Shown in pieces: positions 22,389 to 60,756 of a stretch of 64,000 bases of DNA; position 1 is the first letter of the stretch; the number at the start of each line of letters is the position of its first letter. The position numbers and the translations under genes are program-made. Source of the stretch: Acholoe squamosa (taxonomy: Eukaryota; Annelida; Polychaeta; Phyllodocida; Polynoidae); NCBI GenBank assembly GCA_949317995.1, contig OX439038.1:37701113-37765112 (forward strand), given 5' to 3'. The notes beneath the pieces were generated by a model. The model made no database searches, was not told the origin of the DNA, and worked only from the letters and a program-made list of their open reading frames with translations.

Positions 22389-25113
22389 CGGCAGGACAAG
22401 AAGACCTCCTCGACCTTCTTAATTTCCTGCTGCTTTATTTTGTCTTCCTCCCTCTTCTGGATCTCATAGACCAGATTGAAGGTGGCTTCAGTCATTGTCC
22501 GCCAGTAGTCGATAGACTTCTGGCGATGGAACGACTGCCACTTGGCCATCAGGTCATTCTGGATCTCAATTGTACGTACGTCTCTATGATCGATGAACGT
22601 ATCCGGATCCTGAAGACCTGACAGGGTACTGGCTATCAGTCCCATAACGGGGACCCGAGGGACCGCGGATGGGGCGATAGCTGGTTCAGGTGCAGTGGCT
22701 TCACTTGGAGGGTGCTGTGTTGAAGGTGGGGGAGGTGGAGGTAGAGCAGCTACCTGGCTAACCACCCGATGGGTCTGGTTACCAGGCATGTCCAGAGCCG
22801 AGACCTGTTGTCCCGACTGGCGACGATCAGCTGGATTAGCTGGTCTGGGCTGATCCTTATAGCCCGACAGGCTTACGGATCGGTCTGCGCGGGTCCGTTT
22901 GGAGGTACTGGTAGCCGAACCTCCATTGCTTCCTTTCGAACGGGCTTTTCCTTTCTCCCGTTTGTCGTCACCTCGCCATTTCTTCACCTTCAGGTGCACC
23001 TTGGTGGGCATCCCGAACTTAGTGCTGGAGTAGTTAAAGGCCAAATACGCCATGAGGTTACCACTACTCCAAGAGCAGAATTCGGGCTCGAATGCCTGAT
23101 CCTTAATTCAATCCTTTGTATTCAACGCAGCCCAATTTGCAAGGAGCTCGTTGAAACACTTTACAGCACGCTTCCGGGTCTTTTCCAGGCCTGTACTGTG
23201 GGCTTTCTGCAAGTGCAGAGCAAAGTCCCAGGGCCAGTGAATGGTGAAGGTGCCGTCACAAAGTTTACCCGGGCGATCTCCGGGGATGCATCGCATCAGA
23301 GGCTTGTGGTGCATGTGATGCTCCACAATATGTCGAGCGAAGCGAGGCTTTGTCTCGAATGTCTTCTCACCGGTGAGCGCGAGCTGACATGACTCAGATG
23401 GGCTACGGCCACCAGTACCTCAAAATCCCCATTGGGTCATAGCCCATTGAACTTTTGTTCTGGCCTCGTAGTTGTAAATAGAACCCAATTTGGACTTGAG
23501 CTGGTTGATCCAAATCAGGTAAAATTTACTTACTGGCGTGTCGTTAGGACCGGACTTCATCCACTCCTCGTCATCGCTATCACCATCTTTATTGACGGCG
23601 CCCGGGCACATGAAGTGGATTGTGTCGTATGCACAATCCGCAAAGCAGTGAGGAGTACGGTCTTTAAACCCCTCGGCTGCATTCTTCCACATCCACTTCT
23701 GATTTTCGTCCTTCAGGACGTCCGTGGTCATTTCTTCCCACGTCATCACAGACTCCAAATCAGATTTGGCTGATGCGGGCAGCTCTAGGTCGCTTCCGCT
23801 CCCCGAGTCGCTGTCCGTGTAAATGCCTGCTCCTCTAGGCTGGGCTCGGCTGGTGGTGGTAGTACCAGTCGAAGCCACAACCGAGGTGGTGGCGGCCGTC
23901 CCGCTGGTGGTAGCAGAGGGTCCTGCAGTAACCGAGGTGGTTACTGTAACTGTTGTCGCTGTGGAGGCTGCAGGCTCCGGGTCGCCCTTGCCCCCCTTCT
24001 TGGGAGTAGAGGGTTTGGGCTCCGCCGGAGACGCTTTTGCTCCATTCTTCTTTTTCCGGCGGCTAGCCTTGGGTGGCTGCGGCGGGGCTTCGGGACTAGA
24101 ATCCGACTTGCGTCCTTGTCCTTAGCCCGAGTGCTTCTCCTGCTACTGACCGGTGAGTCAAAGCCGGAGGCGGCAGTCGCCTTGTGTTGAGCCTGCTGCT
24201 TGCGGTGTGCCCGACGGGCAGCGGCTAACTCCTTCTGCTGTTCGTCAAGTTCACGGCGCTTGGTTTCAACAGCAGCTTGCTGGCGAGAAATGTCCTCCTC
24301 CGAGATTCCACCAGCCGCCTCAGGTATGCTGGCGCCTGGTTCCTTCTCGGATTTGGACCTTTCGATGGCGATCCGAAGGTCCTCCACTTCGAGATCAGAC
24401 TCGGTGAGTGGTACCTTTGGCGCGGGCTTACGGCTCAATTTCTTGACCCGTCCGGATTCCACCAACGACTGTGTGATGGTGGAGTCTGTATCCATGTCGG
24501 ATTCCGACTCTCTCAGCTGGCTCACCTTCCGGGTTATACCTTCAGAAAGAAGCACAGCCAAGTTTTCATCCAGGGCCATAGCTCCTGCCAACCGTCTGTA
24601 GTTGCGGAGCCATGACACCGGCATGTTCTCGGCCAACTCGTCCGTACACGAGTCTATCACCAGAGTCTTAAAATCATCTGGGATATTCTCGGGTTGGCCG
24701 GGCACTTCCGCTAAGGGACAGCATCCAAACATGGAGGGATGCATGGGGATATACGTCCCCCAGCTGGTATATACCACACCCTCCTCCTCGTCCACATGGG
24801 ACAGGCACTGGGTGCGGGTTCTTTATCCCGGAGGATACAGCGGAATGTTCAAGACATCGATGGGGTGTGCCGGACCCGGTACCGTAGGTGATGGTTCCGG
24901 GTTAGGAGGAGGAGGCATCCGCTCCCTGTCTGCGACCTCGGTCGACATGGCAGAGAGATTCTGGGCGGCCTCTTCCACTTCGGGTTCTCGTTCGAGAACA
25001 GCTGTTGAGGAGTCCATGGTCTCCTCTACTCGAGACGAGACCGTCGGGTCCTCGCCTTCATCCAACTGAACGTTGGCCTTTTGACGCGCAGCGTCAATCG
25101 TCCCCTGTGCCAT
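22389..25113 (-). pseudogene. ORF3 of A3, degraded and 3'-truncated
   Basis: Homolog of A2 ORF3, starting with ATG MAQGTIDAARQ at 25113. Recognisable blocks in several frames: the MYPPG region, VVYTSWGTYIPMHPSMFGC (about 24790-24730), the coiled coil with EEDISRQQAAVE (about 24305), RTPHCFADCAYDTIHFMCPG (about 23660-23600), the second zinc-finger region with LHLQKAHSTGLEKTRKRA (about 23220-23170), the Pro-rich linker and the C-terminal coiled coil to SCRR. At 22389 it stops abruptly against foreign LTR sequence. At least four frame changes separate the blocks. Confidence 0.82.
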
Positions 25114-27578: not shown

Positions 27579-30530
27579 TTAAGCGGATTTCTTAGCATGC
27601 TTCTTCTTAAGAAGAGCTAGAGCCGACTCGGGAGTGCCGTCCCACTCGTCCAAGTCGACTCCGAATACCCTCATGAACTTAGTGTTCAAGTTGGTATTCC
27701 GAGTAATCTCCTCTTTTACACGTTTCTCCAGCACGTGCACATCCATAGCTGCCTTTTCTTGGGCAGCTGCGGCAGCCTCCTCCTGGGCCTTCACATCGTC
27801 CCGGATGAGGGTCTCGAGGCGCTGCTTTTCAGCGTCACCCACCTGTTTCATACACAACAGGGTGTCGTTTAGGAGACCCTGATGAAACTCGGTCGCTTTT
27901 TCGCGAACACACTTCTCCCAGTGGGTGTAGATGGCCTTCTGAACATCTGCCTCCCCTTGGCGAGACTTCTCAAACCAAACTTCCGCATTACCGGTTTTAA
28001 TGGTAATAGCGTCCTTTGGTTTCACAGGTGCAGCGACAGCCTTGGGAGGAGTCGATGCGGCCTGTGGACCACTTCCGGGTTTGGGGCTTCCGGACACGCC
28101 TGCCGTTGGTACACAGTAGGCAGGGGGTGCGTTCTGCTTCAATCCCATTTGCAGGTACATGTTCAACTGCTCCTGGGTGAAGGTAACTGGCAGGGCGGCT
28201 GGAGCGGATGCAGATCTGGCGGCAGCAGGTGCTGTGGTCTTCTTTGGCATAAGACGACCATCCTTTCCTACCACCAAGGTCTGGCTCTCAGGTCCAGGTC
28301 CCTGGTTTAAGGACGGAAAGTTACGAGGATTAACTTTCCCAGGCTTAGATACGGCTCCAGCGTATCCGGCAGGTTCGGGCTTCTTGAACACCGGAGTGCC
28401 CTGAGCCTGCTCTGCGGGGTGCCTAGCCAGAGGGGACCTGGAACGGTCCTCCGCTCTGACTTTCAGTTTAGCAGTGGTGCTCTGACCATTACCGTTGCCA
28501 CCACGGTTCTGGTCTCTTCTGCTCCTTTCACGAGCTCTCTTTGCATCCTTTCCGGATTCCTCGCATTTCTGCCAGAGAGACTCGTGCATGTCCAGCTTAC
28601 CCTTTCCAGGAGTCAGGACTATCTTAGCGCGGAGTTTCGAATCCTTAGTCTTCGGAACCTCGCAGAGGACTTGGTCCCCTGGTCGGATCTTAGACCAAGC
28701 ATCCTCGCTCAGACTATCGAACTCCTTCATGAGTTCCTGATGAAGCTCCATGATGCGCTTCCGTGCCCCGTCCAAACCTTCTGCGTGGCATTTCTTCTGG
28801 TGTCTAGCCAGATCACTACGTCGGTTGTATTGCACCTTCGTAGTACACTTCTTGCCCTTCTTACCATAACTCGGATCACAAATGTAAACCGGGTGATGGT
28901 GGAAGTGGGCCTCTACCAGATGCCGTTGAAACCGGGCTGGAGTACTCCAGGTCCGGATCGTGACATCACTCGCATCCTGGCAGATAGAGAAGGGACAGGA
29001 CTTTTGGTCGTCACCGTACCACTTCTCTAAAGCCCAACGCAGCTTCCTCCTCTGGGTATAAGTGTAATACCCTTCGGTGTGGTTTAGCATAAGCCACATC
29101 TTTCGATAGGCTTTGCTCGGATTGGGGTCCTCGTCCGAAAGACGCATCCAATCTTCATCATCTGACTCATTATTTTTGTTGACTGAGTCCGGGCAGGCAT
29201 AGAGGGTAGAGCCGTCCTTCTTTACTCCGTACGCACAGTCGGAGAAGCACGTCGGAATCCGGGTTTTGAATCCAGACTTGGCGTTAGCCCAGCGTTCGGC
29301 CTCGGTTTGAGTTGATGGAGTGGCCTTCTCATCATACTCAACCGAGGACTCGTGCACAGACTCCTCGTCAGACGATTCAACCTCCATGGCAGTACTACCA
29401 GTGGTTGAGGTGCTGGGTTTCGGCTCGGCTCTAGCAGAATCCGGGAGATTCTTGAGCTTCCGAGCAGCGGACCTTCGGTTCTTGCTGACCTTCCAGTCTT
29501 CCTCCGGTTCCTGGGTTCCGGATGCGCTGGAGGTCGAGGCTTCTACCTGAGTGGTAGTACTGCCGGTGGCTGGTGTAGCACTGGCTGAACTCCTGGTGGC
29601 AAGTTTCAGGTCGGGGATAGGAGGTGCGGGTACTTCCGCGGCCCTCTTAGCCTCTTCCTGAGCCTCCTGTTCGGCAGTCATTCGGCGGACGAGAACCGTC
29701 CGAAGGGCTGCACCTTGGTCCATACCGGTTAGTGAATTGTTCTGGACATCCACTAATTCTTGCTCGGTTATATAGAAACCTTCATCCCACTGCTCGAAGT
29801 TAGCAGCGGCTTCCCTGTACTCCTTTGTGGTCCGGTACTGGGGCCGGGTAGCACAAGGGCGTGGGTAAGTTTGCCCCTCAGAATCCGAGACGCAGCCTAC
29901 CCAATCAATATTCGTAGCCTTGACGTTCCACAGGGACTTGTCAGGCTTCGGGTACGCTCCGAGCTCGAAGGCTCGGTTGGCTTCATACACTGTCTCACGG
30001 AAGTCAGCGTCTACCATAAGTCCCCGTTGGAACCACGGCCAGTCTTGAAGCCACTCGGGAGGCGTCCTGGTCAGCTGATTGGGAACCATAACGCCCTCGA
30101 CAGCTATCCGAACTTTCGGGTCCAACCTGACTGGTGTCCCGTCCGCGTAGGTCACTTGCGCCTGCAGTTCCGGGTGGACATACAGGTAGCGACCATCATA
30201 CTCTACTGGGAACGGGTTAGCCACTGCTGGCTTCCACTGATCCTTTGGTCTGTAGACTTGGGTGGTCTCGGACTCTGTCGCTGCGGGTTCAGCACTCGCA
30301 GCCGCTCCGGATCCCTCGGGTGGGAGTGGAGATAACAGTTTCTCTGGCTCATTTAGTGAAAATGAAGCCAGCTTCTCCTCGAACGAGCGATCCGTGGATT
30401 CCTCCACGTCCATCATCTCGCTCTCTTCCTGTGTAACAGGCGACAAAGCTTCCGGAAAAGCTTCTGCGGACGGAGTCAGCTTATCCGGGTCACCGGATAG
30501 CTTGGCTGCAGCTACGGATTCCTCAGCCAT
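27579..30530 (-). CDS. ORF3 of B1: unknown 983-aa protein with two C2H2-like fingers
   Basis: Intact frame between pol and the 3' LTR. I take the ATG at 30530 (SPV-MAEES) rather than the upstream TTG. Order: acidic Ser/Glu N-terminus; a block with NPFPVEYDGRYLYVHPELQ (about residues 105-125); a Thr/Ser/Ala linker; a Cys block GFKTRIPTCFSDCAYGVKK then VNKNNESDDEDWM (about 417-455); two zinc fingers starting CPFSICQ (about 511-575), each ending in H-x4-H; a basic, low-complexity region with VNPRNFPSLNQGPG; an Ala-rich coiled coil; and the C-terminal FGVDLDEWDGTPESALALL. The Cys block, fingers and WDG motif align with A2 ORF3; the N-terminal block does not. No signal peptide or membrane segment. 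Nuclear or nucleic-acid binding is inferred from the fingers. I know no named family for it. Confidence 0.85.
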   Translation of the reverse strand: MAEESVAAAKLSGDPDKLTPSAEAFPEALSPVTQEESEMMDVEESTDRSFEEKLASFSLNEPEKLLSPLPPEGSGAAASAEPAATESETTQVYRPKDQWKPAVANPFPVEYDGRYLYVHPELQAQVTYADGTPVRLDPKVRIAVEGVMVPNQLTRTPPEWLQDWPWFQRGLMVDADFRETVYEANRAFELGAYPKPDKSLWNVKATNIDWVGCVSDSEGQTYPRPCATRPQYRTTKEYREAAANFEQWDEGFYITEQELVDVQNNSLTGMDQGAALRTVLVRRMTAEQEAQEEAKRAAEVPAPPIPDLKLATRSSASATPATGSTTTQVEASTSSASGTQEPEEDWKVSKNRRSAARKLKNLPDSARAEPKPSTSTTGSTAMEVESSDEESVHESSVEYDEKATPSTQTEAERWANAKSGFKTRIPTCFSDCAYGVKKDGSTLYACPDSVNKNNESDDEDWMRLSDEDPNPSKAYRKMWLMLNHTEGYYTYTQRRKLRWALEKWYGDDQKSCPFSICQDASDVTIRTWSTPARFQRHLVEAHFHHHPVYICDPSYGKKGKKCTTKVQYNRRSDLARHQKKCHAEGLDGARKRIMELHQELMKEFDSLSEDAWSKIRPGDQVLCEVPKTKDSKLRAKIVLTPGKGKLDMHESLWQKCEESGKDAKRARERSRRDQNRGGNGNGQSTTAKLKVRAEDRSRSPLARHPAEQAQGTPVFKKPEPAGYAGAVSKPGKVNPRNFPSLNQGPGPESQTLVVGKDGRLMPKKTTAPAAARSASAPAALPVTFTQEQLNMYLQMGLKQNAPPAYCVPTAGVSGSPKPGSGPQAASTPPKAVAAPVKPKDAITIKTGNAEVWFEKSRQGEADVQKAIYTHWEKCVREKATEFHQGLLNDTLLCMKQVGDAEKQRLETLIRDDVKAQEEAAAAAQEKAAMDVHVLEKRVKEEITRNTNLNTKFMRVFGVDLDEWDGTPESALALLKKKHAKKSA

Positions 30531-30967
30531 GACTGGGGAATCGCCCACGGGAGTAAAGTACTCCTTTTTCCGGCTTTTACGGCGCCGGGGCCGACACAAA
30601 CGGAGCGAGCTCGACCGTCTTGGACGTTACCGAAAAACAATATGGCGACAGGCCAGCATTCGTGACGTCATTTCCCCGTTGCGCGCGGGGTCACGAGAGG
30701 TCAGCCGAGACTGGACACTGTGACGTCATGCGGAAACGCACGTGCTACGAGCGGTACATCAACAAACTGATTGTTTTTAGGTAATTATCGCTCACGCCGA
30801 TGACTCGTCTGGGGATTTAAGTGGAGTTTATGGAAAGCTTAAGCAAATCCACCGGATTATCCGTCCACTACCCATTGGTACATCATGCGGCGGCGACAAA
30901 TAAGCCTTCCAGGTCAGTTGTCATCCGTTCCTCTAAATGTAAACATTACACCCGTTGTGTATACAGG
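30531..30967 (-). promoter_or_regulatory. Spacer between pol and ORF3 of B1, promoter-like
   Basis: About 440 bases, GC-rich near ORF3. It has two CRE palindromes TGACGTCA (30663-30670, 30721-30728), an E-box CACGTG (30739-30744), a GCGCGC run (30680-30687) and an ATGGCG word (about 30642). They lie about 110-210 bases upstream of the ORF3 ATG, as in family A. No TATA box. An independent ORF3 promoter is inference. Confidence 0.45.
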
Positions 30968-32973: not shown

Positions 32974-33337
32974 TGTAGGGGCCGGCATCATTGTATATAT
33001 ATTAGTGCCGTTCATCCGAGAGACGTGTTCGTGTGGTGCTTGTTCCTTCTATGCTAGCTAGGTGTCGCTTTGCGATACCTCGTTGGTACAAGAGGGGGCA
33101 GCACCATGCCTCGCGTCCAGCTCCTACTAAGGAGCCGGACGAGCGGCAGAAGGGGACTGGACATGGTCCAGTCCAGACGCTAATACTTTGTCATCAGAGA
33201 GATTGAATAAAGTCCTACCCGAGAGGTAGGGGTTTCTGGGGCTTTGCCCAACCCGAACTACTCGTGTTGTGTTGGTACATCTAGTGGTAAGCGAGCCAAA
33301 GAGCCACCCAACATATAAGTCAATACGAACCATTACA
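32974..33337 (+). repeat. 5' LTR of A2
   Basis: TGTAGGGG...CCATTACA. Contains a TATATATA box (about 32993), a 9-bp dyad GGACTGGAC/GTCCAGTCC around ATG (33154-33174), AATAAA (33206-33211) and, three bases later, a CCTACC/GGTAGG hairpin (33214-33230). Confidence 0.95.
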
Positions 33338-33338
33338 C

Positions 33339-33350
33339 TGGTGCCGTGAC
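33339..33350 (+). promoter_or_regulatory. Primer binding site matching tRNA-His (A2)
   Basis: TGGTGCCGTGAC, one base after the LTR, is complementary to the CCA-end of animal tRNA-His as I recall it. The same 12 bases are at 60744-60755, 62339-62350 and 53316-53327 on the minus strand. Confidence 0.75.
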
Positions 33351-33378
33351 CAATAAATTACAAACTGAGTTGCACGCA

Positions 33379-35424
33379 ATGGAGGAGAAGCTTAAGAAAC
33401 TTCAACTCCGGAAAGCTGAGACAGAAGCCAAGATGGTCTCGGAACAAGCCGAGATTAGGAAGGAGACTACTGAATATAACAGGTCTCAGAAAGAGAAGGG
33501 TGAAAAGTACCGCCTACTTAAGGATACTTTTAAGCGAGAGGCAATGATCGCCCAAGAAGAAAGAAACCGAGCTGTGGCTGAAAATGAAAAGATTCGATCC
33601 GAAATCTTGGCAGAAAACGCACAGCTTAGGGAGGAACAGCGAAACCTGACTACAGACGTAGCTACCCTCACATTAAATAAGTCCACTATGGAGAGTTATT
33701 TACAGGAGCAAGAGGAAACACATGCCCCTCCGGCGAGTAGGGTGATAAACCCGAACTCGACGTTCGTGAAACAGGGCGACCCGGTCTCCTGTTCTACACC
33801 GAAGAATCCGCAGTATAATCCTTTTGTAAATGATAATGCTTCGCGGAACGTAGATCAAGGGGGTGTTTACATCAGAACCCAGGATAAGCATGGCCGAACT
33901 AGTAGAGTCCGGATAAGTGAGGTGCCCATAGTCCACAACCTGGACCCGGACTATACCCCTAGAGAGGCTTCCGACAGTAGTGCGGAGACCAGTGGGTTCC
34001 ACATTCATGTGGATCCTAGTAACGACCCGGGGCTGGGTGCTGGTAATGACAACACCCAACCGAATCCATCAAACGATGGCGGCCAGTCAACGGGAAACCA
34101 GCCATCCGATGGCGGGTACCAAGGCGCGCAAGGGGGGGGCGCTGCTTCGGGTGCCACAAGCCATAGTGGTACCTCGGGTACCGGCCCCAACCAAGGTAGT
34201 GCGAGTTATACGAACCACGGTGGTACACAGTGGACGTATACTCAACCTCCACCACCGCCTCCACCTGGCAATTCTAGCTTCGGTGGTATAGGGGGCAATC
34301 GGACCTTGAATGAAACCAAGGCGATTGAATGGAGCAAACAGCAATGCACTAGATTGATGTATGCTCCCAATTCTGCCCGAAGGGTAGCCGTTATTCCTAA
34401 AGAATATGACGGTACTCGACCATGGAAAGAGTGGTTTGAAGATTTCATCGATGTGATGAACTGTAATGGATGGACCCCATACGAGGCCAAGCCACATCTG
34501 GTGAGATGTCTGAAAGGCGGGCCGGGTCGCATGGCTGTAGAGCAATGGCGAACCTGGTACGGCCTCGTTGGGAGTTTTGAGCAGTTAGTAGAAACTGCTA
34601 GTGGACTGTTATGTAATATGGTCAAGGAAGACCCGATGGTCCGTTTTAAGAAACGCACACAGAAGCCGAATGAAGCTTTCAGAGCATACGGTATGGAACT
34701 CCATGCCCTGCTAAGTAAGGCCAGACCCGGTACTGAAAACCAGGACTGGTATATGGACGATTTGATCACTCAATTCGTCAAGGGTCTAAGAGACCGAGAT
34801 GAACAAATAGCAGCGAGGGACGCCTGGAAGGAGGGCATAACACTACACGGCATTTTTAATGGTATAGATATGGCCGTGAAGAAGCGAGCTATGTTAGCTG
34901 GGGACATACCTAATGCCAGCGGCTTGGTACCCCTAGCATCGGTGACCCAGCAGTCGGAGGTCGATACTCCATCAGACGACTTCGAATTGATTGATATCGA
35001 ACAGGAAGACGGCACCTTCTGTTCGATGCAATTAAGGAAGAATACTTCAGGTAGGAAGTATATTCCCAGGAAATCTTTCAATAAACAAAGGGACTCTAGA
35101 CCTTCATCCGAGGTCAAGAGTGACCCGAAGGCTGTCGATAAGGCGGTCAAGTCCATTGTAAGCACTGACAAAGTGAAGATTCAGTCCCCGGACATGACCA
35201 AACTTCTGGAAGACATGTGTAAGAAAATTACAGATGCCATCCAAGCCAATCGGCAAAGACCCCGGGTGGATCGCCGAACGGTTAAGTGTTTCAGGTGCCA
35301 GCGCATGGGACACTACTCATCTGAATGTACCGCTACTAAGCCGGTAATGGCTGCCTTCTATGAAGCCGAAGACGACGGCGTAGAAAGGGAGAATGCTAGG
35401 GATTCCACAGATGTGGAAAACTAG
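33379..35424 (+). CDS. gag: Gag of A2, N-terminally shortened (681 aa)
   Basis: The frame is open from the PBS (33346, a GTG), but the first ATG is 33379 (MEEKLKKL). Coiled coil about residues 1-115; disordered region with NPQYNPFVNDNA (kept in all copies, B included as YSPFVDDGA); Gly/Ser/Gln linker and Pro run; capsid-like region around YDGTRPWKEWFEDF; CCHC knuckle KCFRCQRMGHYSSEC near the end. A3 Gag shows about 350 more residues upstream, so A2 has lost them by a deletion joining PBS to coiled coil. Ends GAA AAC TAG with pol in the -1 frame. It forms the particle shell and binds RNA, by family knowledge; whether this short form works is unknown. Confidence 0.88.
   Translation: MEEKLKKLQLRKAETEAKMVSEQAEIRKETTEYNRSQKEKGEKYRLLKDTFKREAMIAQEERNRAVAENEKIRSEILAENAQLREEQRNLTTDVATLTLNKSTMESYLQEQEETHAPPASRVINPNSTFVKQGDPVSCSTPKNPQYNPFVNDNASRNVDQGGVYIRTQDKHGRTSRVRISEVPIVHNLDPDYTPREASDSSAETSGFHIHVDPSNDPGLGAGNDNTQPNPSNDGGQSTGNQPSDGGYQGAQGGGAASGATSHSGTSGTGPNQGSASYTNHGGTQWTYTQPPPPPPPGNSSFGGIGGNRTLNETKAIEWSKQQCTRLMYAPNSARRVAVIPKEYDGTRPWKEWFEDFIDVMNCNGWTPYEAKPHLVRCLKGGPGRMAVEQWRTWYGLVGSFEQLVETASGLLCNMVKEDPMVRFKKRTQKPNEAFRAYGMELHALLSKARPGTENQDWYMDDLITQFVKGLRDRDEQIAARDAWKEGITLHGIFNGIDMAVKKRAMLAGDIPNASGLVPLASVTQQSEVDTPSDDFELIDIEQEDGTFCSMQLRKNTSGRKYIPRKSFNKQRDSRPSSEVKSDPKAVDKAVKSIVSTDKVKIQSPDMTKLLEDMCKKITDAIQANRQRPRVDRRTVKCFRCQRMGHYSSECTATKPVMAAFYEAEDDGVERENARDSTDVEN
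35415..35424 (+). promoter_or_regulatory. Putative gag-pol -1 frameshift site (A2)
   Basis: GGAAAAC immediately before TAG; pol open in the -1 frame across it. A CCGGG/CCCGG stem can form about 60 bases downstream (about 35486-35501), a possible stimulator. Confidence 0.5.
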
Positions 35425-38400
35425 TGGGGGTTGTGTCAACGGCATCTGACATGGCCCCGAGTGGGAACGAATGCCAAAATGCTACCGGGGGTATCCCGGT
35501 GGAAGATTTCGAGTCAATTACACCTGGAGGCCGGGTGGCTGAGGGTGCGCACCCCTGCACCTCGGCCGGGGCCAGGGACCCTAGTGTTGATATGTGCAGG
35601 AGTGATCATATGGAGGCGAGTGGCCGCACTAGGGGAGAGGAAGGATGGATCAAAGAGTTGATTCGAGTGTGTGGGACACGCCTTCCCCCAAGTCATCCGT
35701 GTCTGGAATTCCTGAGAGGACTCGGATTGAATCTTGGTGATTCGGGAGACTTTCACCAGTTTACCAGTAACCCCTCGCCTTTAGGGGGGAGACGGTGGTA
35801 TGTACCCATATCTGTGGAAGGCCGGGTAGGGGAATTCTTGGTGGATACTGGAGCTAGTCATTCATGTGTGTCCAAAAGATTCTTCGATTCGGTGGCCGGC
35901 AGCCATGAGAACCTCAAAACGGGGGTAAATGCTTGCACGGCCGACGGAAGCAGTATGCGTACATTTGGTAGGACGTTTATGCCTATCCATATAGGAGGCA
36001 AAGAGTTTGTTCTTTCGCCAACTATAGCAGAGGTTAGTGATGACGGAATCCTCGGATTGGATTTTGCAAGCTTATACGGGGCCGTCTTGGACCCGAGGGA
36101 CGGTAGTATGGATATACGGAGCCCGTATGGCTTGCATGTCCAATGCGTATTGAGACAGGTGTCTTCGGTCGCAGCAGTGGTACATACGGTGAAGATCCCA
36201 CCGGGTACCACTTGCGATGTCCTTTGTGGCGGATCCATGGCTCAGAGGAATGAAGCTGGAGTCTACGAACCCGACACGGTGTATCTGTCAAGCATCGGGT
36301 TAGACTCAGTGGATACATTAGTGGCTAATGCAGCTTGGTCCGTATTACCCATAACTAACCGAAGTGGTTCAGTGGTTTATTTGAGGCGAGGCGACAGTGT
36401 TGGAAGGATGAGTTCGGTAGAACATGTCGCCGAGGCTAAATTTAACAAACCACTAAACCCAGTTAGTCAGCATCCTATGGATGAAGAATTCCAAAAGCTG
36501 ATTGATCAGTCAGATTTAAAGAATACGGACGATAAGGATTGCCTAGCGAGACTTCTACAAAAGTACGAAGGTGCTTTTGGTAGGGAAGGAGGCCCGGTGG
36601 GTAGATCCGATAAGGTGTTGCACACCATAGATGTGGGCAGCGAGAAACCTTTTAAAATCCCGTATCGTAGACTTCCCCTTAAAAAGAAGTTAATCTGTGA
36701 AGAGCAAATACAGAAACAGTTGGACCTAGGGGTAATCGTGCCTAGCTCGAGTCCCTGGTCCAGCCCTGTTTGTATGACTACTAAGAAAGACGGTACAATC
36801 CGCTTTTGTGTCGACTACCGGAAATTGAACGGTATAACAAAGAAGAACTCGTATCCTTTACCAAGGATAGACGAGACTTTAGATAGCTTGGGCGGAAACC
36901 AATGGTTCTGTACCTTGGATTTACAGTCCGGATATTGGCAAATACCAATGCACCCCAAAGACAAGGAGAAGACAGCATTCTCCAGTCATATGGGGCTGTT
37001 TGAGTATAATGTCCTACCCTTCGGATTGTGTAACGCCCCCGCTACATTCGAGGCCATGATGGAATCCTTACTGAGTGACCTTTTGTGGAAGAAATGCCTG
37101 GTTTACTTGGATGATGTGGTCGTGTTCGGCAAGTCATTCAAGGAATGCCTGGCAAATCTGCAACTAGTCCTCGACCGGATACTATCAAACGGTCTTAAAC
37201 TTAAACCCAAGAAATGTAATTTGTTTAAGAAAACCATTACATACTTGGGAAGGATCATTACTCCTAACGGGGTAAGAGCGGATCCGGAAAAATTAGAAGC
37301 TGTAGAAAATTGGGAAAGACCCACGAGTGCTAAGGAGGTGAGATCATTTTTAGGATTTTGTTCCTATTATCGTGATTTCATACCGAATTACTCTCGTGTC
37401 AGCTTCCCCATGCAGTGCTTAGCTCACTGGACCCCGGGTAGGGCACGGGACCCATTCCCATGGACCAGCGAGCAAGAAGAGTCTTTTAATAAAATAAAAG
37501 ATTTATTTAGGAATACACCCGTGTTGAAATATCCCACTCCCGAGGGACATTTCATCTTAGACACCGATGCGAGCAATGATGCGATTGGGGCAGCTCTCTC
37601 TCAGGTCCAAGAGGGAGTCGAAGTGCCAATAGCATTTGCTAGCAACACGTTAAGCAAGACACAGCGAAATTATTGTACCACCAAGCGAGAACTCCTCGCT
37701 GTGGTGGTGTATACGAAGAAGTTTAAGCATTTCCTTTGGGGAAGTGACTTTACTTTAAGAACAGACCATTCGTCTCTTAGGTGGCTCCTTAACTTCAAGG
37801 ACGCCGAGGGGATGATTGGACGTTGGTTAGCTCACCTATCCGAATTCGGATTAGAGCATAAACAAATAGAGCACCGACCCGGTGCTAAACACATCAATGC
37901 GGATGCCTTGTCAAGACGGCCTATCCGAAGGTGCCAAAATGCCACATGTGAAGACTGCGGGGCCCACAATGCTGTGGTAGCCGGGTTGGTATTTAATTAT
38001 ACCACCCCCCGTATCCCCTGGGAGGAGGCTGTATGCAGCTATCTCGATTGGTCCCCGGAGACCATCAAGAAGTTTCAACAGTCAGACCCCACCACTGCGC
38101 GCATAATGGAATACCTACGGTCAGGCATTAAACCGGCAAGGCCTCTAGTTTCCCTGGAGGATAGGGAAGCGAGGCGGTTGCTGGCTCAATGGGCCGAGCT
38201 AGAGATCCGAGACGGCATACTATGTAGGTGGAAGACAACTCCCACCAACGGTAGGCTGTTGCAAATAGTGATACCCGCCCCGATGAGGAGGGATATCATG
38301 TATTATTGCCATGGCCACCAAACGAGTGGCCATTTCGGTAAGAGAAGGTCGATAGAGCGTCTACAAAGGCGTTACTACTGGCCCGGTATGAGAGGCGACC

Positions 38401-39659
38401 TGCTCCGGTGGATCGCCACTTGCCCGGATTGTTGTAAAAACAAACCGGGACCCGGCCTGGGTAAGCAACCCTTATCACAGGAATTGTTTGGTGTCAGATT
38501 TGCTCGAATAGCGATAGACATCATCAGTGGGATTAAGACGACGCCGCGAGACAATACTTGTATGATGGTCGTAACTGACTATTATACTAAGTACACTCGG
38601 GTGTTCCCCCTTCCCAACCACAAAGCCGCCACATGCGCGGAGGCATTTGTGAAAGGCTGGGTGCTGCATTTGGGTGTTCCCCTTATGATGCACAGTGACC
38701 AGGGAAGGGAGTTCGAGTCAGAACTTTGGCAGGAAATGTGCCATTACCTAGCCATTTGTAAGACCCGAACAAACCCGTACCGACCACAGTCGGATGGGCA
38801 GGTAGAACGCTTCAATAGAACCCTCATACAAGTACTAAAGCCCCTGGTTAATACCCACCAGGATGACTGGGATGAACAGTGCGAGTTTGTAGTACATGCC
38901 TACAACAACACTGTCCATTCATCAACTAACTGCACCCCAAACATGCTAGTGTTCGGCGAGGACATCATAATGCCCGCCGACTTAGTGTATGGAGTGGTTG
39001 GAATAGACCCGGAGGCGCCCTGCACGGTGCTGTTTGTAGAGTCATTAAGGGACCGGTTCAAACAGGCATACGAGGCCGTTCGGAAAGAACTGCTGAAGAG
39101 TGCGAAGTGGCAGAAGGTGGGCTATGACACCAATGCTAAACGAATTCGTTTTAATGTTGGGGACAAAGTACTAAGGTACTACGAGCCGCTGGATAAGCTG
39201 AAGCTCGTAACGCCTTGGGAAGGTCCATTTAAAATCGTTCGCGTCATCTCCGAGTCCACGGTGATGATAGAGGACTGCCTGACGGGTAGGAAATGGAAGA
39301 CAAATGTCGGAAAACTTCGGCCCTGGAAGGGGCGCGAAGAGGCGGAGAGGGAGTTCGGTTACAAACCACCTGAATCTGTCCCTAGCGGACCGAGCGTGGT
39401 AGTACCGACGAAACGCCCTAGAGGCCGGCCGAGAAAGACGCCGGGAGACGAGGTTATAGTAAAAAAGAAGACGAAGGCCAGGAAACGACCTAATCGTAAG
39501 AAATGGAAGAAAGTCTCGCTGAGTGAAGGCATTACGTATGGGAAGGGTCCCGCTCTGACTAAGCGAGATCCAGAAAAGGCCGTACGTAAAGCCGGGAAAA
39601 ATAAAATGCTAACCGAAGGCGTTAGACGCAGCCCCCGGTTGAGGTCTGCTGTAACCTAA
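35422..39659 (+). CDS. pol: Pol polyprotein of A2, intact (about 1411 aa)
   Basis: Expressed presumably by -1 frameshifting from gag. Protease VDTGASHS at about residue 139; RT with LPFGLCNAPATFEAMME and YLDDVVVF (about 560); RNase H with LDTDAS, TKRELLAVV, RTDHSS and ADALSR; integrase with HHCC zinc site (H, H, CPDC at about 962-995) and D-D-E core (AIDIISG about 1033, HSDQG about 1090, VERFNR about 1127); a GPF module near 1266; and a Lys/Arg-rich tail with AT-hook-like KRPRGRPRK (about 1330) ending RRSPRLRSAVT. RT before integrase with a single LTR pair places it in Ty3/gypsy. No chromodomain seen. The only complete pol in the window. Confidence 0.95.
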
Positions 39660-40179
39660 CTCAGTACACAACGAGCTGCTGCGTGTTGTCCGCCATAGGC
39701 AGGCAACATACGTTCCACGGCCTGAGATGTCGAACGCGCCCTCCCCGGGTGGCTGTATCCCGTGAGTGGCGGTCGGATTAACCGGTACATTCGCTTTGAA
39801 GCGTTGTATACACCGCTAAGCTCCAGACGATAGCACTCGGGTAGTAGGCCGCGTCTCACATGTCGAGTCGAATGTTGGTTCGGATCTAGTTCCCTAGGTG
39901 GCGCTGCTGGTGTGGCGGGAAAGCGCGGAACTAGGTCACCGGATAGCCATGGCGGGATCTCGCGAGACGAGAGGTCTGACGTCATACTGGTCATAACTAG
40001 AGCGGACTCGTGGTGGTTAGACGCCACCCGTTTTTGCTCTAGTTATTTGTCGGCGGTTATACAGCCTGTAGCTGTCGTGTTAGCCTAGCTAACCCCCCAA
40101 AAGCCTTTCTGTTGGACGAATCCTTCGGGAGGAGTCCAACAAAACTTGCCAATTAATTTTGGAAGTCGAACCCGGTGCC
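39660..40179 (+). promoter_or_regulatory. Spacer between pol and ORF3 of A2, promoter-like
   Basis: 520 noncoding GC-rich bases. TCTCGCGAGA at 39958-39967 and TGACGTCA at 39977-39984, 195-220 bases before the ORF3 ATG; no TATA box. Kept nearly base for base between A1 and A2, though it encodes nothing. Known: both motifs act in TATA-less animal promoters. Inferred: a separate ORF3 transcript. Confidence 0.5.
40111..40140 (+). promoter_or_regulatory. Conserved UUCG-capped hairpin before ORF3 (A2)
   Basis: Outer stem GTTGGAC/GTCCAAC, small GAA/GGA internal loop, inner TCC/GGA closing TTCG. It ends 39 bases before the ATG. Could be a 5'-leader RNA structure or a DNA palindrome bound by protein. 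Confidence 0.6.
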
Positions 40180-43100
40180 ATGGCACAGGGAACGATTGAC
40201 GCTGCGCGTCAAACAGCCAACATTCCGTTGGAACAAGACGAGGACCCGAAGGTCCCGTCTCGGGTCGAGGAATCTATGGATTCTTCGACAGAGGAGGCCG
40301 CCCAGACGCTCACGGCTATGGCCGAGGCAACCGACCGGGAGAGGATGCCACCTCCACCCCCGCCACGCCCGGAGCGCCCGTCAACAACAGACGCTTCGGG
40401 TAGCAAAGTGGATGTCCTGGACATTCCAATGTATCCTCCGGGATTCAGGACGCAGATCAGACGTCTAGCACACGTCGATCGCCAGGAAGGTATCGTGTAT
40501 ACCTCCTGGGGTACGTACATCCCTATGCACGCCTCCATGTTCGGATGCGGGCCCATGGCGGTGGAGCAGGGCGTGCCCGAGCCCATACCAGATGAACTCA
40601 AAACTATGGTAATGGACTCGTGTAGTGACGAGCTGGCTGACAACATGCCAGTTTCTTGGCTCCGCAACTACCTAAAGTTGGCGGAGAATATGGCGACTAA
40701 CGAGAATTTAGCTCGAGCCGTCTTGATCTCTGCGGGCATCATCCAGAAGGCCACGGAGTTAAGGGAGTCCGAATCCGACATGGATACAGACTCCACGGTA
40801 ACCTTGTCGTCGGTGGAAACCGACCGGGTCAAGCGATTGACCCGTAAACCTGCACCCAAGGGTCCTCTCACTGAGAGCGACCTGGAGGCTGAAGATGTCC
40901 GCATCGCCGTCGAGAGGTCCACGACCGAGACCGACCCAGCTGCCGACATCCCAGAGGCACCTGGCGAGATCTCTGAAGAGGACATCTCACGCCAGCAGGC
41001 TGCTGTAGAGGCAAAGCGAATCGAGCTTGCCAAGCAGCAGAAGGAGCTCACCGCAGCTCGCCGGGCCCATCGCAAGCAGCAGGCCCAACGAAAAACAGAG
41101 ATCTCTTCCGACTCTGACTCCCCAGTCAGCGGAAGGAGGAGCCCTCGGACAGGGGACAGGAGCCGACGCGAGTCGGATTCCAGTCCCGAAGTTCCGGCCC
41201 AACCGACTAAGGTTGTGCGCCGGAAGAAGAAGAATGGAGCGAAAGCGTCTCCGGTAGAGCCCACGCCCCCCACCAAGCCGAGGGGTAAGGGCAAACCGAA
41301 GACGCCCGCTCCCACCACTACAACCACCACGGTAGCCACCTCGGTTACTGCATCTTCTGCAGCCAGCACGTCGGGTGCAAAGACGAAGTCCCCTACCAAG
41401 GCTCCGACTGGTACTACCACCTCCAGCCGAGCCGGCCGTAGGGGAGCTGACATATACACGGACAGCGAGGAAAGCGAAAGCGATCCAGAGCTGCCCGAGT
41501 CTGCCAAATCTGATTTGGAGTCCGTGACAACGTGGGAAGAAATGACCACGGATGTTCCCAAGGACGACAATCAGAAGTGGATGTGGAAGAATGCAGCCGA
41601 GGGGTTCAAGGAACGGACTCCCCGCTGCTTCGCGGACTGTGCTTACGACACAGTCCATTATATGTGTCCGAGCGCCGTCAATAAGGACGGTGACAGCGAT
41701 GACGAGGAGTGGATGAAGTCCGGCCCCTCAGATACGCCAGTAGGCAAGTTCTACCTGATTTGGATTGACCAGCTCAAGTCCAAATTAGGCTCGATCTACA
41801 GCTACGAGGCCCGGACGAAAGTCCAGTGGGCAATGACCCAATGGGGACCAACCGGCAACCGCCGAAGGTGCCCGTTTGAGTCTTGCCAGCTGTCTCTCAC
41901 GGGTGAGAAGATGTTCGAGACGAAGCCCCGCTTCGCTCGACACATCGTTGAATTTCATATGCATCACAAGCCTGTGATGATGTGTGTGCTCGGGGACCGC
42001 CCGAGTAAACATTGTGATGGCTCGTTCAGCACTCACCGGCGCCGAGACATGGCTCTGCATTTGCAGAAGGCCCATGGCATCGGCCTGGAGAAGACCAGGA
42101 AACGAGCCATCAAGTGCTTCAGCGAGCTCCTTGCAAATTGGTCCGCGCTGAGCATCAAGGAAGTGAAAGAGCAGGCATTCGAGACCGGATTCTGCTCGTG
42201 GAAGAGCGGCAACTTGCTGACTTACTTCCAGACGAACTCCTCGTCCACAAAATTCGGGATGCCCAGCGAGGTGCACCTGAAGGTGAAAAAGTGGCGAGGA
42301 GACGACAAGCGAGAGAAGGCCAAAGCCCGCTCTAAAGGTCCAAACGGAGGCACAGTCACGACTACTGCTTCCAAGAGGACCCGAGCAGACCGGTCCGTGA
42401 GCCCTTCGGGTGGCAAGGACCAGCCCAGACCAGCCAATCCAGCTGATCGTCGCGAGTCGGGACAACAGGTCTCGGCTCTGGAGATGCCTGGCAACCAGGC
42501 CCGCAGGTCGGGTAGCCAGGCGACCGCATCGGCGACTCCAGCCACCTCCACACCTGCACCCGCGGAACAACGCCCGGGCGAAGCCTCTGGCGGCCAGGAT
42601 GATGGGGGCGAACTGCTCGCTCCCCCATCCGGGTATTCTACTTGGTGGGCTGGAGAGGGATCCTCCGGCAAACGCCCCACGTACAGTGAGTACGCGGCGA
42701 AGTTCCCTTCAATGGGACCGGCTGGACCCGAGTCGCAGGTCCTTACCCCCTTGGGCCGGGCCAAAGCTCGTGGTAGGGGCCGCGGTGGGCTGGAGTCCAC
42801 CCGAGGCTCTCCGGGTGGTGGCCGAGGCCGAGGAGGCATCACGGTGGAGGGCCCGTCTGCTCCTCCAACAGGCACCCCGCCTGTCTCAGTGGAGGCCCCA
42901 GCGCCACCACCAGTGATAGTTCCACCAACAGGTCCTCGGGTACCCCTAATGGAACTAATCTCCGGTACCCTGTCAGGTCTTCAGGATCCGAACACGTTCG
43001 TCGACCACCGCGATGTCCGAACGGTTCAGATCCAGAATGAGCTGATGGAAGAATGGCAGGCATTGCACCGCCAGAAGTCTGTTGACTACTGGCGTGTGAT

Positions 43101-43686
43101 GACTGAAGCCACCGTCAATCTGGTCTACGAGATCCAGAGGCGGGAGGAAGATAAAATCAGGGAGCTGGAAAGGAAGAAGGTCGAGGAGGCCCTCGAGTCC
43201 TGCCGGCGAAAACAGAAGGAAGCCGAAAAGCTTAAAGAGTTTCACGAAGCTGAAAACTCCAGATATATCCATCGATTTAAGGAGGCGGACCTCAAGTTTT
43301 TCTTGGCATTCGGGAAACATCTGGAGGAGTGGGACGGCTTACCGTCGTCTCTCATCTTCGTTCCAGAGATACCCCCGGATGCCCCGCCAGCCCCGGCTAC
43401 TCCACCGGTCCTGGCCACTCCACCGGTCCCGGCTGCTCCGCCGATTCCGGCAGCTCTCTTGCTCCCGCCCCCCACTTGGAACCGGGCTGTCCCAACTGCC
43501 ACGGTTGCTGCACCAGCATCCGAGGCAATGGACAGCCCGTCCGCAGTGATGAGGGCCTTGAGCTTGGGGAGCGAGACTCCCAGCGAGGCTTCAGCGGCGC
43601 TCTCTACGAGCAGCTGTAGCAGCTCGGCTCCATCTGCCTCAGTTGAGCCGGCTGAGAAGATGGACACAGATCCTGAAGATCTTTGA
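40180..43686 (+). CDS. ORF3 of A2: unknown 1168-aa protein with Cys block, two C2H2-like fingers, RGG region
   Basis: Starts at ATG in a strong context (GCCATGG); the TTG seven codons upstream is less likely. Order: acidic N-terminus with Pro run (1-75); conserved block DVLDIPMYPPGF then YTSWGTYIPMHASMFGC (about 78-170); coiled coil EEDISRQQAAVEAKR (about 266-303); basic Ser/Thr/Pro linker; Cys block GFKERTPRCFADCAYDTVHY (about 475-497) followed by SDDEEWM; finger 1 C564-x4-C569-x18-H588-x4-H593; finger 2 C602-x9-C612-x14-H627-x4-H632; Pro/Gly region with an RGG-like KARGRGRGG (about 863-886); long coiled coil (about 960-1035); LEEWDG (about 1050); Pro/Ala/Ser tail. It lies where env would be, but has no signal peptide or membrane helix. 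A nucleic-acid-binding role is inferred. Not recognised as any named family. Confidence 0.9.
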   Translation: MAQGTIDAARQTANIPLEQDEDPKVPSRVEESMDSSTEEAAQTLTAMAEATDRERMPPPPPPRPERPSTTDASGSKVDVLDIPMYPPGFRTQIRRLAHVDRQEGIVYTSWGTYIPMHASMFGCGPMAVEQGVPEPIPDELKTMVMDSCSDELADNMPVSWLRNYLKLAENMATNENLARAVLISAGIIQKATELRESESDMDTDSTVTLSSVETDRVKRLTRKPAPKGPLTESDLEAEDVRIAVERSTTETDPAADIPEAPGEISEEDISRQQAAVEAKRIELAKQQKELTAARRAHRKQQAQRKTEISSDSDSPVSGRRSPRTGDRSRRESDSSPEVPAQPTKVVRRKKKNGAKASPVEPTPPTKPRGKGKPKTPAPTTTTTTVATSVTASSAASTSGAKTKSPTKAPTGTTTSSRAGRRGADIYTDSEESESDPELPESAKSDLESVTTWEEMTTDVPKDDNQKWMWKNAAEGFKERTPRCFADCAYDTVHYMCPSAVNKDGDSDDEEWMKSGPSDTPVGKFYLIWIDQLKSKLGSIYSYEARTKVQWAMTQWGPTGNRRRCPFESCQLSLTGEKMFETKPRFARHIVEFHMHHKPVMMCVLGDRPSKHCDGSFSTHRRRDMALHLQKAHGIGLEKTRKRAIKCFSELLANWSALSIKEVKEQAFETGFCSWKSGNLLTYFQTNSSSTKFGMPSEVHLKVKKWRGDDKREKAKARSKGPNGGTVTTTASKRTRADRSVSPSGGKDQPRPANPADRRESGQQVSALEMPGNQARRSGSQATASATPATSTPAPAEQRPGEASGGQDDGGELLAPPSGYSTWWAGEGSSGKRPTYSEYAAKFPSMGPAGPESQVLTPLGRAKARGRGRGGLESTRGSPGGGRGRGGITVEGPSAPPTGTPPVSVEAPAPPPVIVPPTGPRVPLMELISGTLSGLQDPNTFVDHRDVRTVQIQNELMEEWQALHRQKSVDYWRVMTEATVNLVYEIQRREEDKIRELERKKVEEALESCRRKQKEAEKLKEFHEAENSRYIHRFKEADLKFFLAFGKHLEEWDGLPSSLIFVPEIPPDAPPAPATPPVLATPPVPAAPPIPAALLLPPPTWNRAVPTATVAAPASEAMDSPSAVMRALSLGSETPSEASAALSTSSCSSSAPSASVEPAEKMDTDPEDL

Positions 43687-44439: not shown

Positions 44440-44803
44440 TGTAGGGGCCGGCATCATTGTATATATATTAGTGCCGTTCATCCGAGAGACGTGTTCGTGT
44501 GGTGCTTGTTCCTTCTATGCTAGCTAGGTGTCGCTTTGCGATACCTCGTTGGTACAAGAGGGGGCAGCACCATGCCTCGCGTCCAGCTCCTACTAAGGAG
44601 CCGGACGAGCGGCAGAAGGGGACTGGACATGGTCCAGTCCAGACGCTAATACTTTGTCATCAGAGAGATTGAATAAAGTCCTACCCGAGAGGTAGGGGTT
44701 TCTGGGGCTTTGCCCAACCCGAACTACTCGTGTTGTGTTGGTACATCTAGTGGTAAGCGAGCCAAAGAGCCACCCAACATATAAGTCAATACGAACCATT
44801 ACA
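44440..44803 (+). repeat. 3' LTR of A2
   Basis: 364 bp; I find no difference from the 5' LTR at 32974-33337 by eye. Confidence 0.95.
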
Positions 44804-49780: not shown

Positions 49781-49879
49781 TAATGATCCATTTCCATTCT
49801 CTTGGGCAATTGATTGCCCTGCTGGGTTAGCTTCCCTGAGGGTGTCTAACCCATGTACCAGCCGTTCGGACGTTATAAC

Positions 49880-60735: not shown

Positions 60736-60743
60736 ACCAACTG

Positions 60744-60755: not shown

Positions 60756-60756
60756 G

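What the first reader, a model, noticed from the sequence alone, without database searches (positions are those of the whole stretch)
40180..43686. A third large gene in Ty3/gypsy elements: zinc-finger protein in the env position
A2 ORF3 (1168 aa) and B1 ORF3 (983 aa) are both open and lie between pol and the 3' LTR. They share an ordered core: GFK-x-R-x-P-x-CF-x-DCAY, SDDE-x-WM, two C2H2-like fingers with H-x4-H ends, a coiled coil and a WDG end motif, while their N-termini differ. There is no signal peptide or membrane helix, so it is not an ordinary env. The shared core in two diverged families suggests a kept function, perhaps RNA or DNA binding, silencing evasion or targeting. Basis seen: the frames and motifs. 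Inferred: function and selection.
Basis: partly seen in the sequence, partly recalled or inferred. Interest (0 to 1): 0.88.

Follow-up and report, generated by a model that had tools for sequence, protein, structure and literature searches.

The report
Retrotransposon third gene, not an envelope
Three diverged families of LTR retrotransposons in this genome share a fast-changing but strongly selected third gene that makes a zinc-finger-like, coiled-coil protein where an envelope gene usually sits, and it may have its own start region, so these mobile elements probably carry a private regulator whose role is still unknown.

Summary
A2 ORF3 (40180-43686, 1168 aa) and B1 ORF3 (27582-30530, minus, 983 aa) are open, lie between pol and the 3' LTR, and share an ordered core. 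Beyond the finding: a third family (D; fragment at the window's right end, full copies elsewhere in the genome) carries the gene in the same place. Between A2, B1 and a D copy, pol is 59-69% identical, ORF3 22-31%. dN/dS is 0.17 (A2 vs C), 0.14 (B copies) and median 0.15 (D, 45 pairs), so the protein is kept. A and D also share an N-terminal domain. No membrane segment, while 3 of 6 other Gypsy-type families sampled here have a Baculo_F envelope there. New: the 440-610 nt spacer before ORF3 has a block conserved between families, carries TCTCGCG, TGACGTCA or GCCATNTTG about 180-220 nt before the ATG, and in D diverges less than synonymous sites of both neighbouring genes. I read it as an internal promoter for a nuclear regulator (works like foamy-virus Tas or Cer1 CERV; member of neither). 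High CpG is not confined to the spacer, so it adds little. Expression and function are inferred. No homologue was found by sequence; the core could not be modelled.

The parts
32974..33337 (+). A2 5' LTR (TG...CA reading; 4-bp target duplication CTGG at 32970-32973 and 44804-44807)
   Evidence: 100% identical to the 3' LTR. A 3-bp duplication with TG...AC ends fits the letters equally well
33346..35424 (+). A2 gag ORF (692 aa, zinc knuckle)
35424..39659 (+). A2 pol ORF (1411 aa; protease, RT, RNase H, integrase)
39660..40179 (+). pol-ORF3 spacer, proposed internal promoter and leader of ORF3
39754..39830 (+). block conserved with the B1 spacer (and B1 with D); holds GGTCGGATTAACCGG at 39771
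   Evidence: 0 of 200 shuffles reach the A2-B1 or B1-D score; a pattern drawn from these blocks is found 4 times in the window, all in spacers
39958..39984 (+). TCTCGCGAGA (39958-39967) and TGACGTCA (39977-39984), about 200 nt before the ORF3 ATG
40180..43686 (+). A2 ORF3, 1168 aa
   Evidence: 39 full-length places without inner stops scored in the genome, A2 itself included
40582..40722 (+). N-terminal domain shared with family D (P-x-x-WL-x-NY...N)
   Evidence: (E 7.5e-5)
41602..41715 (+). Cys block to DDEEWM
41869..41958 (+). finger-like C-x4-C...H-x4-H, first of two
41983..42075 (+). finger-like C...C...H-x4-H, second of two
42703..42744 (+). FPSMGPAGPESQVL motif shared by A, B and D
43024..43338 (+). 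C-terminal long helix (coiled coil) ending in the WDG motif
   Evidence: (one helix of 102 residues; 92 of 145 residues with pLDDT 90 or more)
44440..44803 (+). A2 3' LTR
27582..30530 (-). B1 ORF3, 983 aa (core 28785-29273; FPSLNQGPGPESQTL 28275-28319; helix-WDG 27636-27944)
30531..30967 (-). B1 spacer before ORF3 (437 nt after the homologous end of pol), with two TGACGTCA (30663, 30721), GCCATNTTG (30646, minus) and GGACGGATAATCCGG (30866, minus)
   Evidence: This copy lacks a stretch present in the nine other B copies aligned
22385..25113 (-). C: degraded A-family ORF3, several stops, end truncated
5990..6774 (+). A1: ORF3 with an internal deletion (aa 72-169 and 984-1168 of A2 remain in the alignments)
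63375..63803 (-). D: 3' end of ORF3 of a third family (KFFEAFG..LSDWDG)

Best explanation
ORF3 is a conserved accessory gene of one Gypsy lineage, inherited by at least three diverged families. It encodes a soluble protein with an acidic start, an N-terminal domain (A and D), charged and basic linkers with NLS-like runs, a Cys/His core with two C2H2-like fingers, and a C-terminal coiled coil that would let it dimerise. It is most likely transcribed from its own promoter in the pol-ORF3 spacer and works in the nucleus as a regulator of the element itself, binding the element's DNA (or RNA) to favour gag-pol expression, by activating the LTR or countering silencing. Shown: gene, position, selection, absence of membrane parts, conserved spacer. 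Inferred: promoter activity, nuclear site, nucleic-acid binding, regulatory role.
For: Selection: A2 vs C dN/dS 0.174 over 907 codons, 0.083 in the core, against gag 0.099 and pol 0.104; 36 pairs of 9 B copies pooled 0.144; 45 pairs of 10 D copies, median 0.149. Finger ligands kept in 8 of 8 A, 10 of 10 B and 18 of 21 D loci with a readable frame (A and B copies are near-identical, so D carries the weight). Not an envelope. Same place in three families whose pol is 59-69% identical. Spacer: block shared by B1-D (score 45, best of 200 shuffles 29-30) and A2-B1 (32 vs 29), while the 3' UTR shows no excess in any of three pairs and the LTR little in the one pair tested (7 of 200 shuffles reach it). 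All 4 TGACGTCA, all 3 TCTCGCGAGA and all 4 matches of the CGGAT-palindrome pattern in the 64-kb window lie in ORF3 spacers. Motif places relative to the ATG agree between families where the motif is present. D spacer divergence is below the synonymous divergence of pol and of ORF3, and below that of the 3' UTR, in 10 of 10 pairs of five copies. C-terminal helix predicted with pLDDT above 90.
Against: No expression data. Motifs were picked after looking and the A copies are not independent. No motif is in all families: A1 and A2 lack GCCATNTTG, B lacks TCTCGCG, D lacks TGACGTCA and 2 of 6 D copies lack TCTCGCG; GCCATNTTG also occurs once outside the spacers and once in an envelope-family spacer. 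CpG is no discrete spacer signal: o/e is 1.11-1.16 in the spacers (1.31 in B1's own), but 500-nt windows reach 1.31 at the end of A2 pol and 1.29 in its 3' UTR. The stretch without upstream ATG is only modestly unusual per copy (A2 38, A1 19, C 133, D 1-36, B 22-54, B1 78 of 500 shuffles) and would also fit a splice acceptor; B copies other than the window's have a pyrimidine-rich YAG in the leader. No 9-mer shared by LTR and spacer in the same orientation, one in the opposite orientation in A. A2-D spacers show no direct match (137 of 200 shuffles reach it). Fingers do not reach Pfam cut-offs; the core model failed (pLDDT 34).
Confidence: 0.42

Rival explanations
1. CERV/Rev-like: ORF3 is made from a spliced mRNA started in the 5' LTR and is needed to export unspliced genomic RNA from the nucleus.
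For: Cer1 of C. elegans, also an LTR retrotransposon, encodes such a protein (CERV, 517 aa, spliced, nuclear, Cys-rich, no obvious homology outside nematodes; PMC10309623 abstract and section 9). B copies other than the window's have a pyrimidine-rich YAG in the leader. The ATG-free leader fits an acceptor too.
Against: No covariation for an RNA structure in the spacer (1 of 171 predicted pairs with a double change; 7 similar sequences, so low power). The motif cluster is not explained by a splice acceptor. The pol-less L036 junction is not a GT-AG intron.
Confidence: 0.27
2. Integration or nuclear-entry helper: ORF3 joins the preintegration complex and steers it by binding chromatin or DNA.
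For: Basic NLS-like runs and DNA-binding-type finger ligands; no chromodomain was found in A2 pol.
Against: Across three searches hits fall on contigs C1 to C18; target preference was not examined. A separate, faster-evolving gene is unusual for an integrase partner (inference).
Confidence: 0.12
3. Structural or assembly partner of Gag (packaging, capsid maturation, RNA chaperone).
For: Coiled coil, basic and RG-containing tracts; the pol-deleted copy L036 keeps a gag piece plus an open ORF3.
Against: No profile similarity to Gag of A2 or B1 (E 0.028 or worse). L036 is one of 12 loci fetched and its gag lies in two frames.
Confidence: 0.12
4. Envelope-like protein for cell-to-cell spread.
For: Position between pol and the 3' LTR; 3 of 6 other families sampled in the same genome carry a Baculo_F envelope there.
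Against: No membrane segment or signal peptide by hydropathy in one protein of each family; no Baculo_F or other match.
Confidence: 0.02
5. A captured host gene carried as a passenger without use to the element.
For: No homologue known, so the origin is open.
Against: Kept in at least three families under selection.
Confidence: 0.03

Closest known systems
CERV of Cer1 (C. elegans LTR retrotransposon), PMC10309623 (abstract and section 9)
   Same: Non-envelope protein of an LTR retrotransposon, Cys-rich with a leucine-zipper/helix part, highly divergent between species, no obvious outside homologues
   Different: 517 aa; made from a 5-exon mRNA whose first exons share the gag frame; H, M and G domains and a possible C4 finger; shown to be nuclear and needed for RNA export. 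Here a free-standing 976-1168 aa ORF with two C2H2-like fingers and no function data
Accessory gene23 of maize Grande and other plant aORFs, PMC7264820 (abstract, sections 4, 7, 8)
   Same: Extra gene between pol and the 3' LTR; for Grande a nuclear protein and a promoter upstream of the gene are reported
   Different: Grande gene23 is antisense to gag-pol and in plants; here it is in sense orientation; no sequence link tested
Foamy virus Tas and internal promoter (PMC8670036, listing abstract only)
   Same: Regulatory protein of an LTR element, thought here to be driven by a second promoter downstream of the LTR
   Different: Retroviridae; Tas is essential for LTR and internal promoter activity, which is not shown here; homology not tested
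Bdelloid rotifer ORF3 (GDSL, DEDDy), PMC5408684 (passages)
   Same: Diverse non-envelope ORF3 after pol in LTR retrotransposons
   Different: Those are enzymes with recognised families; this ORF3 has no Pfam match above cut-off
Baculo_F envelopes of Gypsy elements
   Same: Same genomic position; present in 3 of 6 other families sampled here
   Different: Proteins with hydrophobic segments; ORF3 has none
VANC anti-silencing proteins of Arabidopsis VANDAL elements (PMC5735166 and PMC10398659, titles and start of abstracts in the listing only)
   Same: Element-encoded, sequence-specific protein that counters silencing (that role is only proposed here)
   Different: Plant elements; recalled to be DNA transposons; homology not tested

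Membership tests
Gypsy (Metaviridae) LTR retrotransposon | LTRs, gag, pol in the order PR-RT-RNaseH-INT; primer-binding site after the 5' LTR | tested here: met
   (PBS TGGTGCCGTGAC read by eye; its tRNA-His likeness is recalled)
Envelope (Baculo_F and other) | Recognisable family match | tested here: not met
   positive controls
Envelope (Baculo_F and other) | Signal peptide and membrane anchor | tested here: not met
   (hydropathy only)
C2H2 zinc-finger protein | Two Cys and two His per finger, kept across copies | tested here: met
   8 of 8 A, 10 of 10 B, 18 of 21 D (3 further D loci gave no readable frame)
C2H2 zinc-finger protein | Match to a zinc-finger profile above cut-off, or a modelled fold | tested here: not met
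   best zinc-finger match zf-H2C2_5 E 0.16, 12.0 bits (cut-off 27); model unusable, so the fold itself stays open
CERV (Cer1) | mRNA spliced from the gag 5' exons | not testable with these tools
   no transcript data; the free-standing ORF with its own ATG argues against it
CERV (Cer1) | Sequence homology | not tested
   CERV sequence not at hand
Foamy-virus Tas type circuit | Internal promoter upstream of the regulator gene | tested here: inconclusive
   conserved spacer and promoter-like motifs, but CpG not specific to the spacer and no activity data
Foamy-virus Tas type circuit | Regulator acts on LTR and internal promoter | not testable with these tools
   no shared 9-mer in the same orientation between LTR and spacer
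Bdelloid ORF3 enzymes (GDSL, DEDDy) | Enzyme family match | tested here: not met
Plant sense/antisense aORFs | Sequence homology | not tested
   no plant aORF sequence was at hand

The most novel reading that the evidence does not exclude
A Gypsy lineage has evolved a two-promoter plan like that of a complex retrovirus: an early, internally promoted zinc-finger regulator that acts on its own DNA or RNA before gag-pol is made, sits where other families keep an envelope, and coevolves fast with the host.
Probability: 0.28. Interest if true: 0.8.

Novelty: new variant of a known kind. Interest (0 to 1): 0.6.

Why it matters
Extra genes after pol are often taken for envelope-like ones. Here one genome offers a direct contrast: Gypsy-type families with a true envelope, and a lineage in which a large, selected, non-membrane protein with a conserved leader takes that place. 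Recent copies (39 places scored in family A, all at 100% rounded identity) mean expression and function can be tested. It would add a regulator-bearing type between simple retrotransposons and complex retroviruses.

Tried and rejected
Homologues: A2 core (634 candidates, none at E 0.01) and a 7-row ORF3 alignment (7990 candidates scored, none at E 0.01) in 5.8 billion proteins. The same database holds pol relatives at 66-69% identity (849 of 7987 scored at E 1e-5), so relatives of the element are in it; but candidates need shared 5-residue words and ORF3 is only about 25% conserved between families, so absence is weak evidence. PDB none; Pfam none above cut-off; IMG/VR: no relative with A2 pol or A2 ORF3 (13 pattern matches, none confirmed).

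Structure: the core model failed; only the C-terminal helix is confident. No fold search was run, since a failed core and a lone helix would give meaningless matches.

CpG as a promoter sign: the first comparison looked good, but a finer scan shows the end of A2 pol and its 3' UTR as CpG-rich as the spacer, so I no longer lean on it and lowered the promoter reading a little (0.45 to 0.42, novel case 0.30 to 0.28, splicing rival 0.25 to 0.27). RNA structure of the spacer: no covariation support. Spliced-copy idea for L036: junction has a 24-nt filler and no GT-AG, so it is a deletion. ORF3 as a gag duplicate: no. Shared LTR/spacer site: none in the same orientation. Within-family copies of A and B were ranked by protein score, which favours few amino-acid changes; I therefore lean on A2 vs C and on the D pairs. 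The D copies were chosen for long open frames, also a bias towards intact ones.

Literature on a zinc-finger ORF3 in Gypsy elements: in the lists shown by searches I saw no such protein named; CERV is the nearest. Most subscription papers and Repbase reports are not covered, so this is not proof of novelty.
Full report
What was checked. The window is G000:C4:37701113-37765112 of an unnamed 1.48-Gb genome in 63 contigs; contigs C1 to C18 appear in the hit tables and those whose length was printed are 54-127 Mb. The host was not identified: the one search meant to place it did not complete. A2 is a young Gypsy element on the + strand with two identical LTRs, gag, pol and ORF3. It sits inside B1 (minus strand, LTRs 99.2% identical), which sits inside C, an older A-family copy (read from the matches). 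ORF3 of A2 has 1168 codons from an ATG in GCCATGG context; ORF3 of B1 has 983.

More families than seen. The window holds two more A-family copies of ORF3, one internally deleted (A1) and one decayed (C), and at its right end the tail of a third, unlike family, D. Searching the host genome with A2 ORF3 scored 39 of 19,695 candidates; all 39, A2 included, are full length at 100% rounded identity without inner stops. With B1 ORF3, 47 of 13,275 were scored, 96-100%; by my count 25 of 47, B1 included, have no inner stop. With a 187-aa piece of D, 150 of 7,163 were scored, 79-100%, many with open frames up to 983 aa. Only the best candidates are scored, so these are lower bounds. Twelve D loci, chosen from the 150 for long frames and spread of score, were fetched: 11 of 12 have pol sequence similar to A2 pol upstream, followed in most after about 600 nt by ORF3; the twelfth (L036) has a gag piece, 24 nt of filler, and D sequence from 9 nt before the ORF3 ATG on, with pol gone.

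Rates. Between A2, B1 and D copy L032, pol is 59-69% identical (A-B RT part 58.7, A-B integrase part 66.9, A-D 67-68, B-D integrase part 68.6); pieces of pol in other D copies reach 79% to A2 and the last stretch of pol in some only 31-34%. ORF3 is 22-31% identical over the aligned parts. Profile comparison links the three full proteins (D-A E 7e-39, D-B 2e-33, B-A 8.5e-30), the N-terminal parts of A and D (E 7.5e-5), weakly D and B (0.023), and not A and B (0.069); 24 column-shuffled N-terminal controls gave E 0.046 or worse. A2 vs C dN/dS is 0.174 over 907 codons and 0.083 in aa 464-665; gag 0.099 and pol 0.104 for the same pair. A2 vs B1 is saturated at synonymous sites. Nine B copies against B1 give 0.10-0.36, pooled among themselves 0.144 (36 pairs). 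Ten of the twelve D copies (L039 and L043, broken, left out) give a median of 0.149 over 45 pairs, range 0.116-0.529, the three values above 0.3 at dS below 0.04. Seven further A2 copies share one amino-acid difference from A2 (residue 42) and otherwise differ from it only by silent changes. Copies of A and B were ranked by protein score, and D copies chosen for open frames, which biases towards conserved proteins; A2 vs C is free of that.

The protein. Order in the three families: acidic start; N-terminal domain (P-x-x-WL-x-NY, A and D; a weak echo in B); charged and basic stretch; GFK..C..C block to DDEEWM; C-x4-C...H-x4-H, then HHxPV..C...C...H-x4-H; FPxMGPxGPESQTL; a helix ending FGxxLxxWDG. 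Finger ligands are intact in 8 of 8 A, 10 of 10 B and 18 of 21 D loci in which a frame with the HHHPV string was found (3 of the 24 D loci gave none); A and B copies are near-identical, so the D count carries the weight. No zinc-finger profile reaches its cut-off. AlphaFold failed on the core from 4 window rows (pLDDT 34) but gives one helix of 102 residues, mostly at pLDDT above 90, for the C-terminal part. There is no hydrophobic segment: maximum Kyte-Doolittle over 19 residues 1.41 (A2), 0.68 (B1), 0.75 (D, L032), against 2.33-3.23 for three envelopes.

Control families. Of 150 RNase H hits listed, I read a 3.7-kb stretch downstream of six. None of the six has an ORF3 relative by a profile built from the seven-row alignment; tblastn without low-complexity filter gave only short matches of 33-60 columns to A2 ORF3 in three of them (E 6e-4 to 5e-3, two of them on the opposite strand). 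Three of six carry a Baculo_F envelope above Pfam's cut-off. So envelope detection works in this genome, and ORF3 is not a general feature of its Gypsy-type elements. Six is a small sample.

The spacer. Between pol and ORF3 lie 520 nt (A2), 437 nt (B1; 508 in B copy L011) and 607 nt (D, L032). B1 and D share an 80-nt block (score 45; best of 200 shuffles 29 to 30), A2 and B1 match at the same place (32; best 29), A2 and D do not directly (137 of 200 shuffles reach the score). The 3' UTRs show no such match in any of three pairs (47, 98 and 181 of 200 shuffles reach the score), and the LTRs of A2 and B1 only at the ends (7 of 200). A pattern drawn from the block, GG(A/T)CGGAT..(A/G)A(T/C)CCGG, is found four times in the window, each time in a spacer (A1, A2, B1, C). 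Nearer the ATG: TGACGTCA (4 of 4 in the window in spacers: A1, A2, B1 twice), TCTCGCGAGA (3 of 3: A1, A2, C), GCCATNTTG (2 of 3: C and B1; also in D; one outside). Relative to the ATG they lie at 195-222 nt (TGACGTCA, proximal site, and TCTCGCG) and 179-187 nt (GCCATNTTG) where present; A1 and A2 lack GCCATNTTG, B lacks TCTCGCG, D lacks TGACGTCA, 2 of 6 D copies lack TCTCGCG, 1 of 6 B copies lacks the proximal TGACGTCA, and B1 itself is 71 nt shorter. Three envelope-family spacers have no TGACGTCA or TCTCGCG but one has a GCCATNTTG. CpG o/e is 1.11-1.16 in the spacers as averages, 0.78-0.97 in other element parts as averages, 0.39 in a 7-kb stretch outside and 0-0.59 in the three envelope-family spacers; but 500-nt windows at the end of A2 pol and in its 3' UTR are as CpG-rich (up to 1.31 and 1.29), so CpG does not single the spacer out. 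In the D family, spacer divergence is lower than synonymous divergence of pol and of ORF3 in 10 of 10 pairs of five copies (for example 0.097 against 0.259 and 0.334), and lower than the 3' UTR in 10 of 10; these pairs are not independent. That TGACGTCA, TCTCGCGAGA and GCCATNTTG resemble CRE, a known TATA-less promoter motif and YY1 sites is recalled knowledge, not a tool result; the motifs were chosen after looking.

Reading. The account I prefer is a transcription unit of its own: a promoter about 200 nt before the ATG drives a nuclear regulator. Such regulation is familiar from complex retroviruses (recalled; foamy-virus Tas, PMC8670036, seen as a listing abstract), and Cer1 shows that an LTR retrotransposon can depend on an own protein for RNA export (PMC10309623, abstract and section 9 read). 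The plant Grande element has a nuclear accessory protein with its own promoter, antisense (PMC7264820, abstract and sections 4, 7, 8 read). Bdelloid elements have other ORF3 types (PMC5408684, passages). Retand (PMC11963269), Lamellibrachia (PMC8220671) and mollusc (PMC6238403) papers were seen in passages, Troyka (PMC12440569) as abstract, VANC papers as listing. Splicing from the LTR is not excluded.

Verdict. Real, selected and shared by at least three families; not an envelope; a new variant of the known kind 'accessory ORF after pol'. The conserved leader makes the question testable by simple 5'-end mapping.

Noticed in passing
46471-49881 and 49880-53290: A head-to-tail duplication of 3.4 kb (99.97%) covering the B1 gag region; assembly artefact or real, not resolved.
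   Followed up: no
59978-61575 and 61573-63166: A second head-to-tail duplication of 1.6 kb (99.1%) around an A-type LTR upstream of element C.
   Followed up: no
16775-20020: Large tandem arrays with periods near 38 and 21 nt.
   Followed up: no
L036 (G000:C7:17327600-17334700): A D-family element with pol deleted that keeps a gag piece and an open 976-aa ORF3; D sequence resumes 9 nt before the ATG after 24 nt of filler.
   Followed up: partly
L047, L049, L050: Three other Gypsy-type families of this genome have Baculo_F envelopes after pol.
   Followed up: partly
L045 and L046: Two Gypsy-type families with long open frames downstream of RNase H (511 and 1203 aa) and no Pfam match above cut-off.
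   Followed up: no
A2 vs A1: Synonymous divergence differs strongly along the element (dS: pol 0.20, gag 0.35, ORF3 0.72), which hints at recombination between subfamilies.
   Followed up: no
38924-39659 and 43774-44524: The end of A2 pol and part of its 3' UTR are as CpG-rich as the spacer (500-nt windows up to 1.31 and 1.29).
   Followed up: no
30531-30967 (minus): The B1 copy in the window lacks a stretch of the ORF3 leader (71 nt shorter) that the nine other B copies aligned have.
   Followed up: partly
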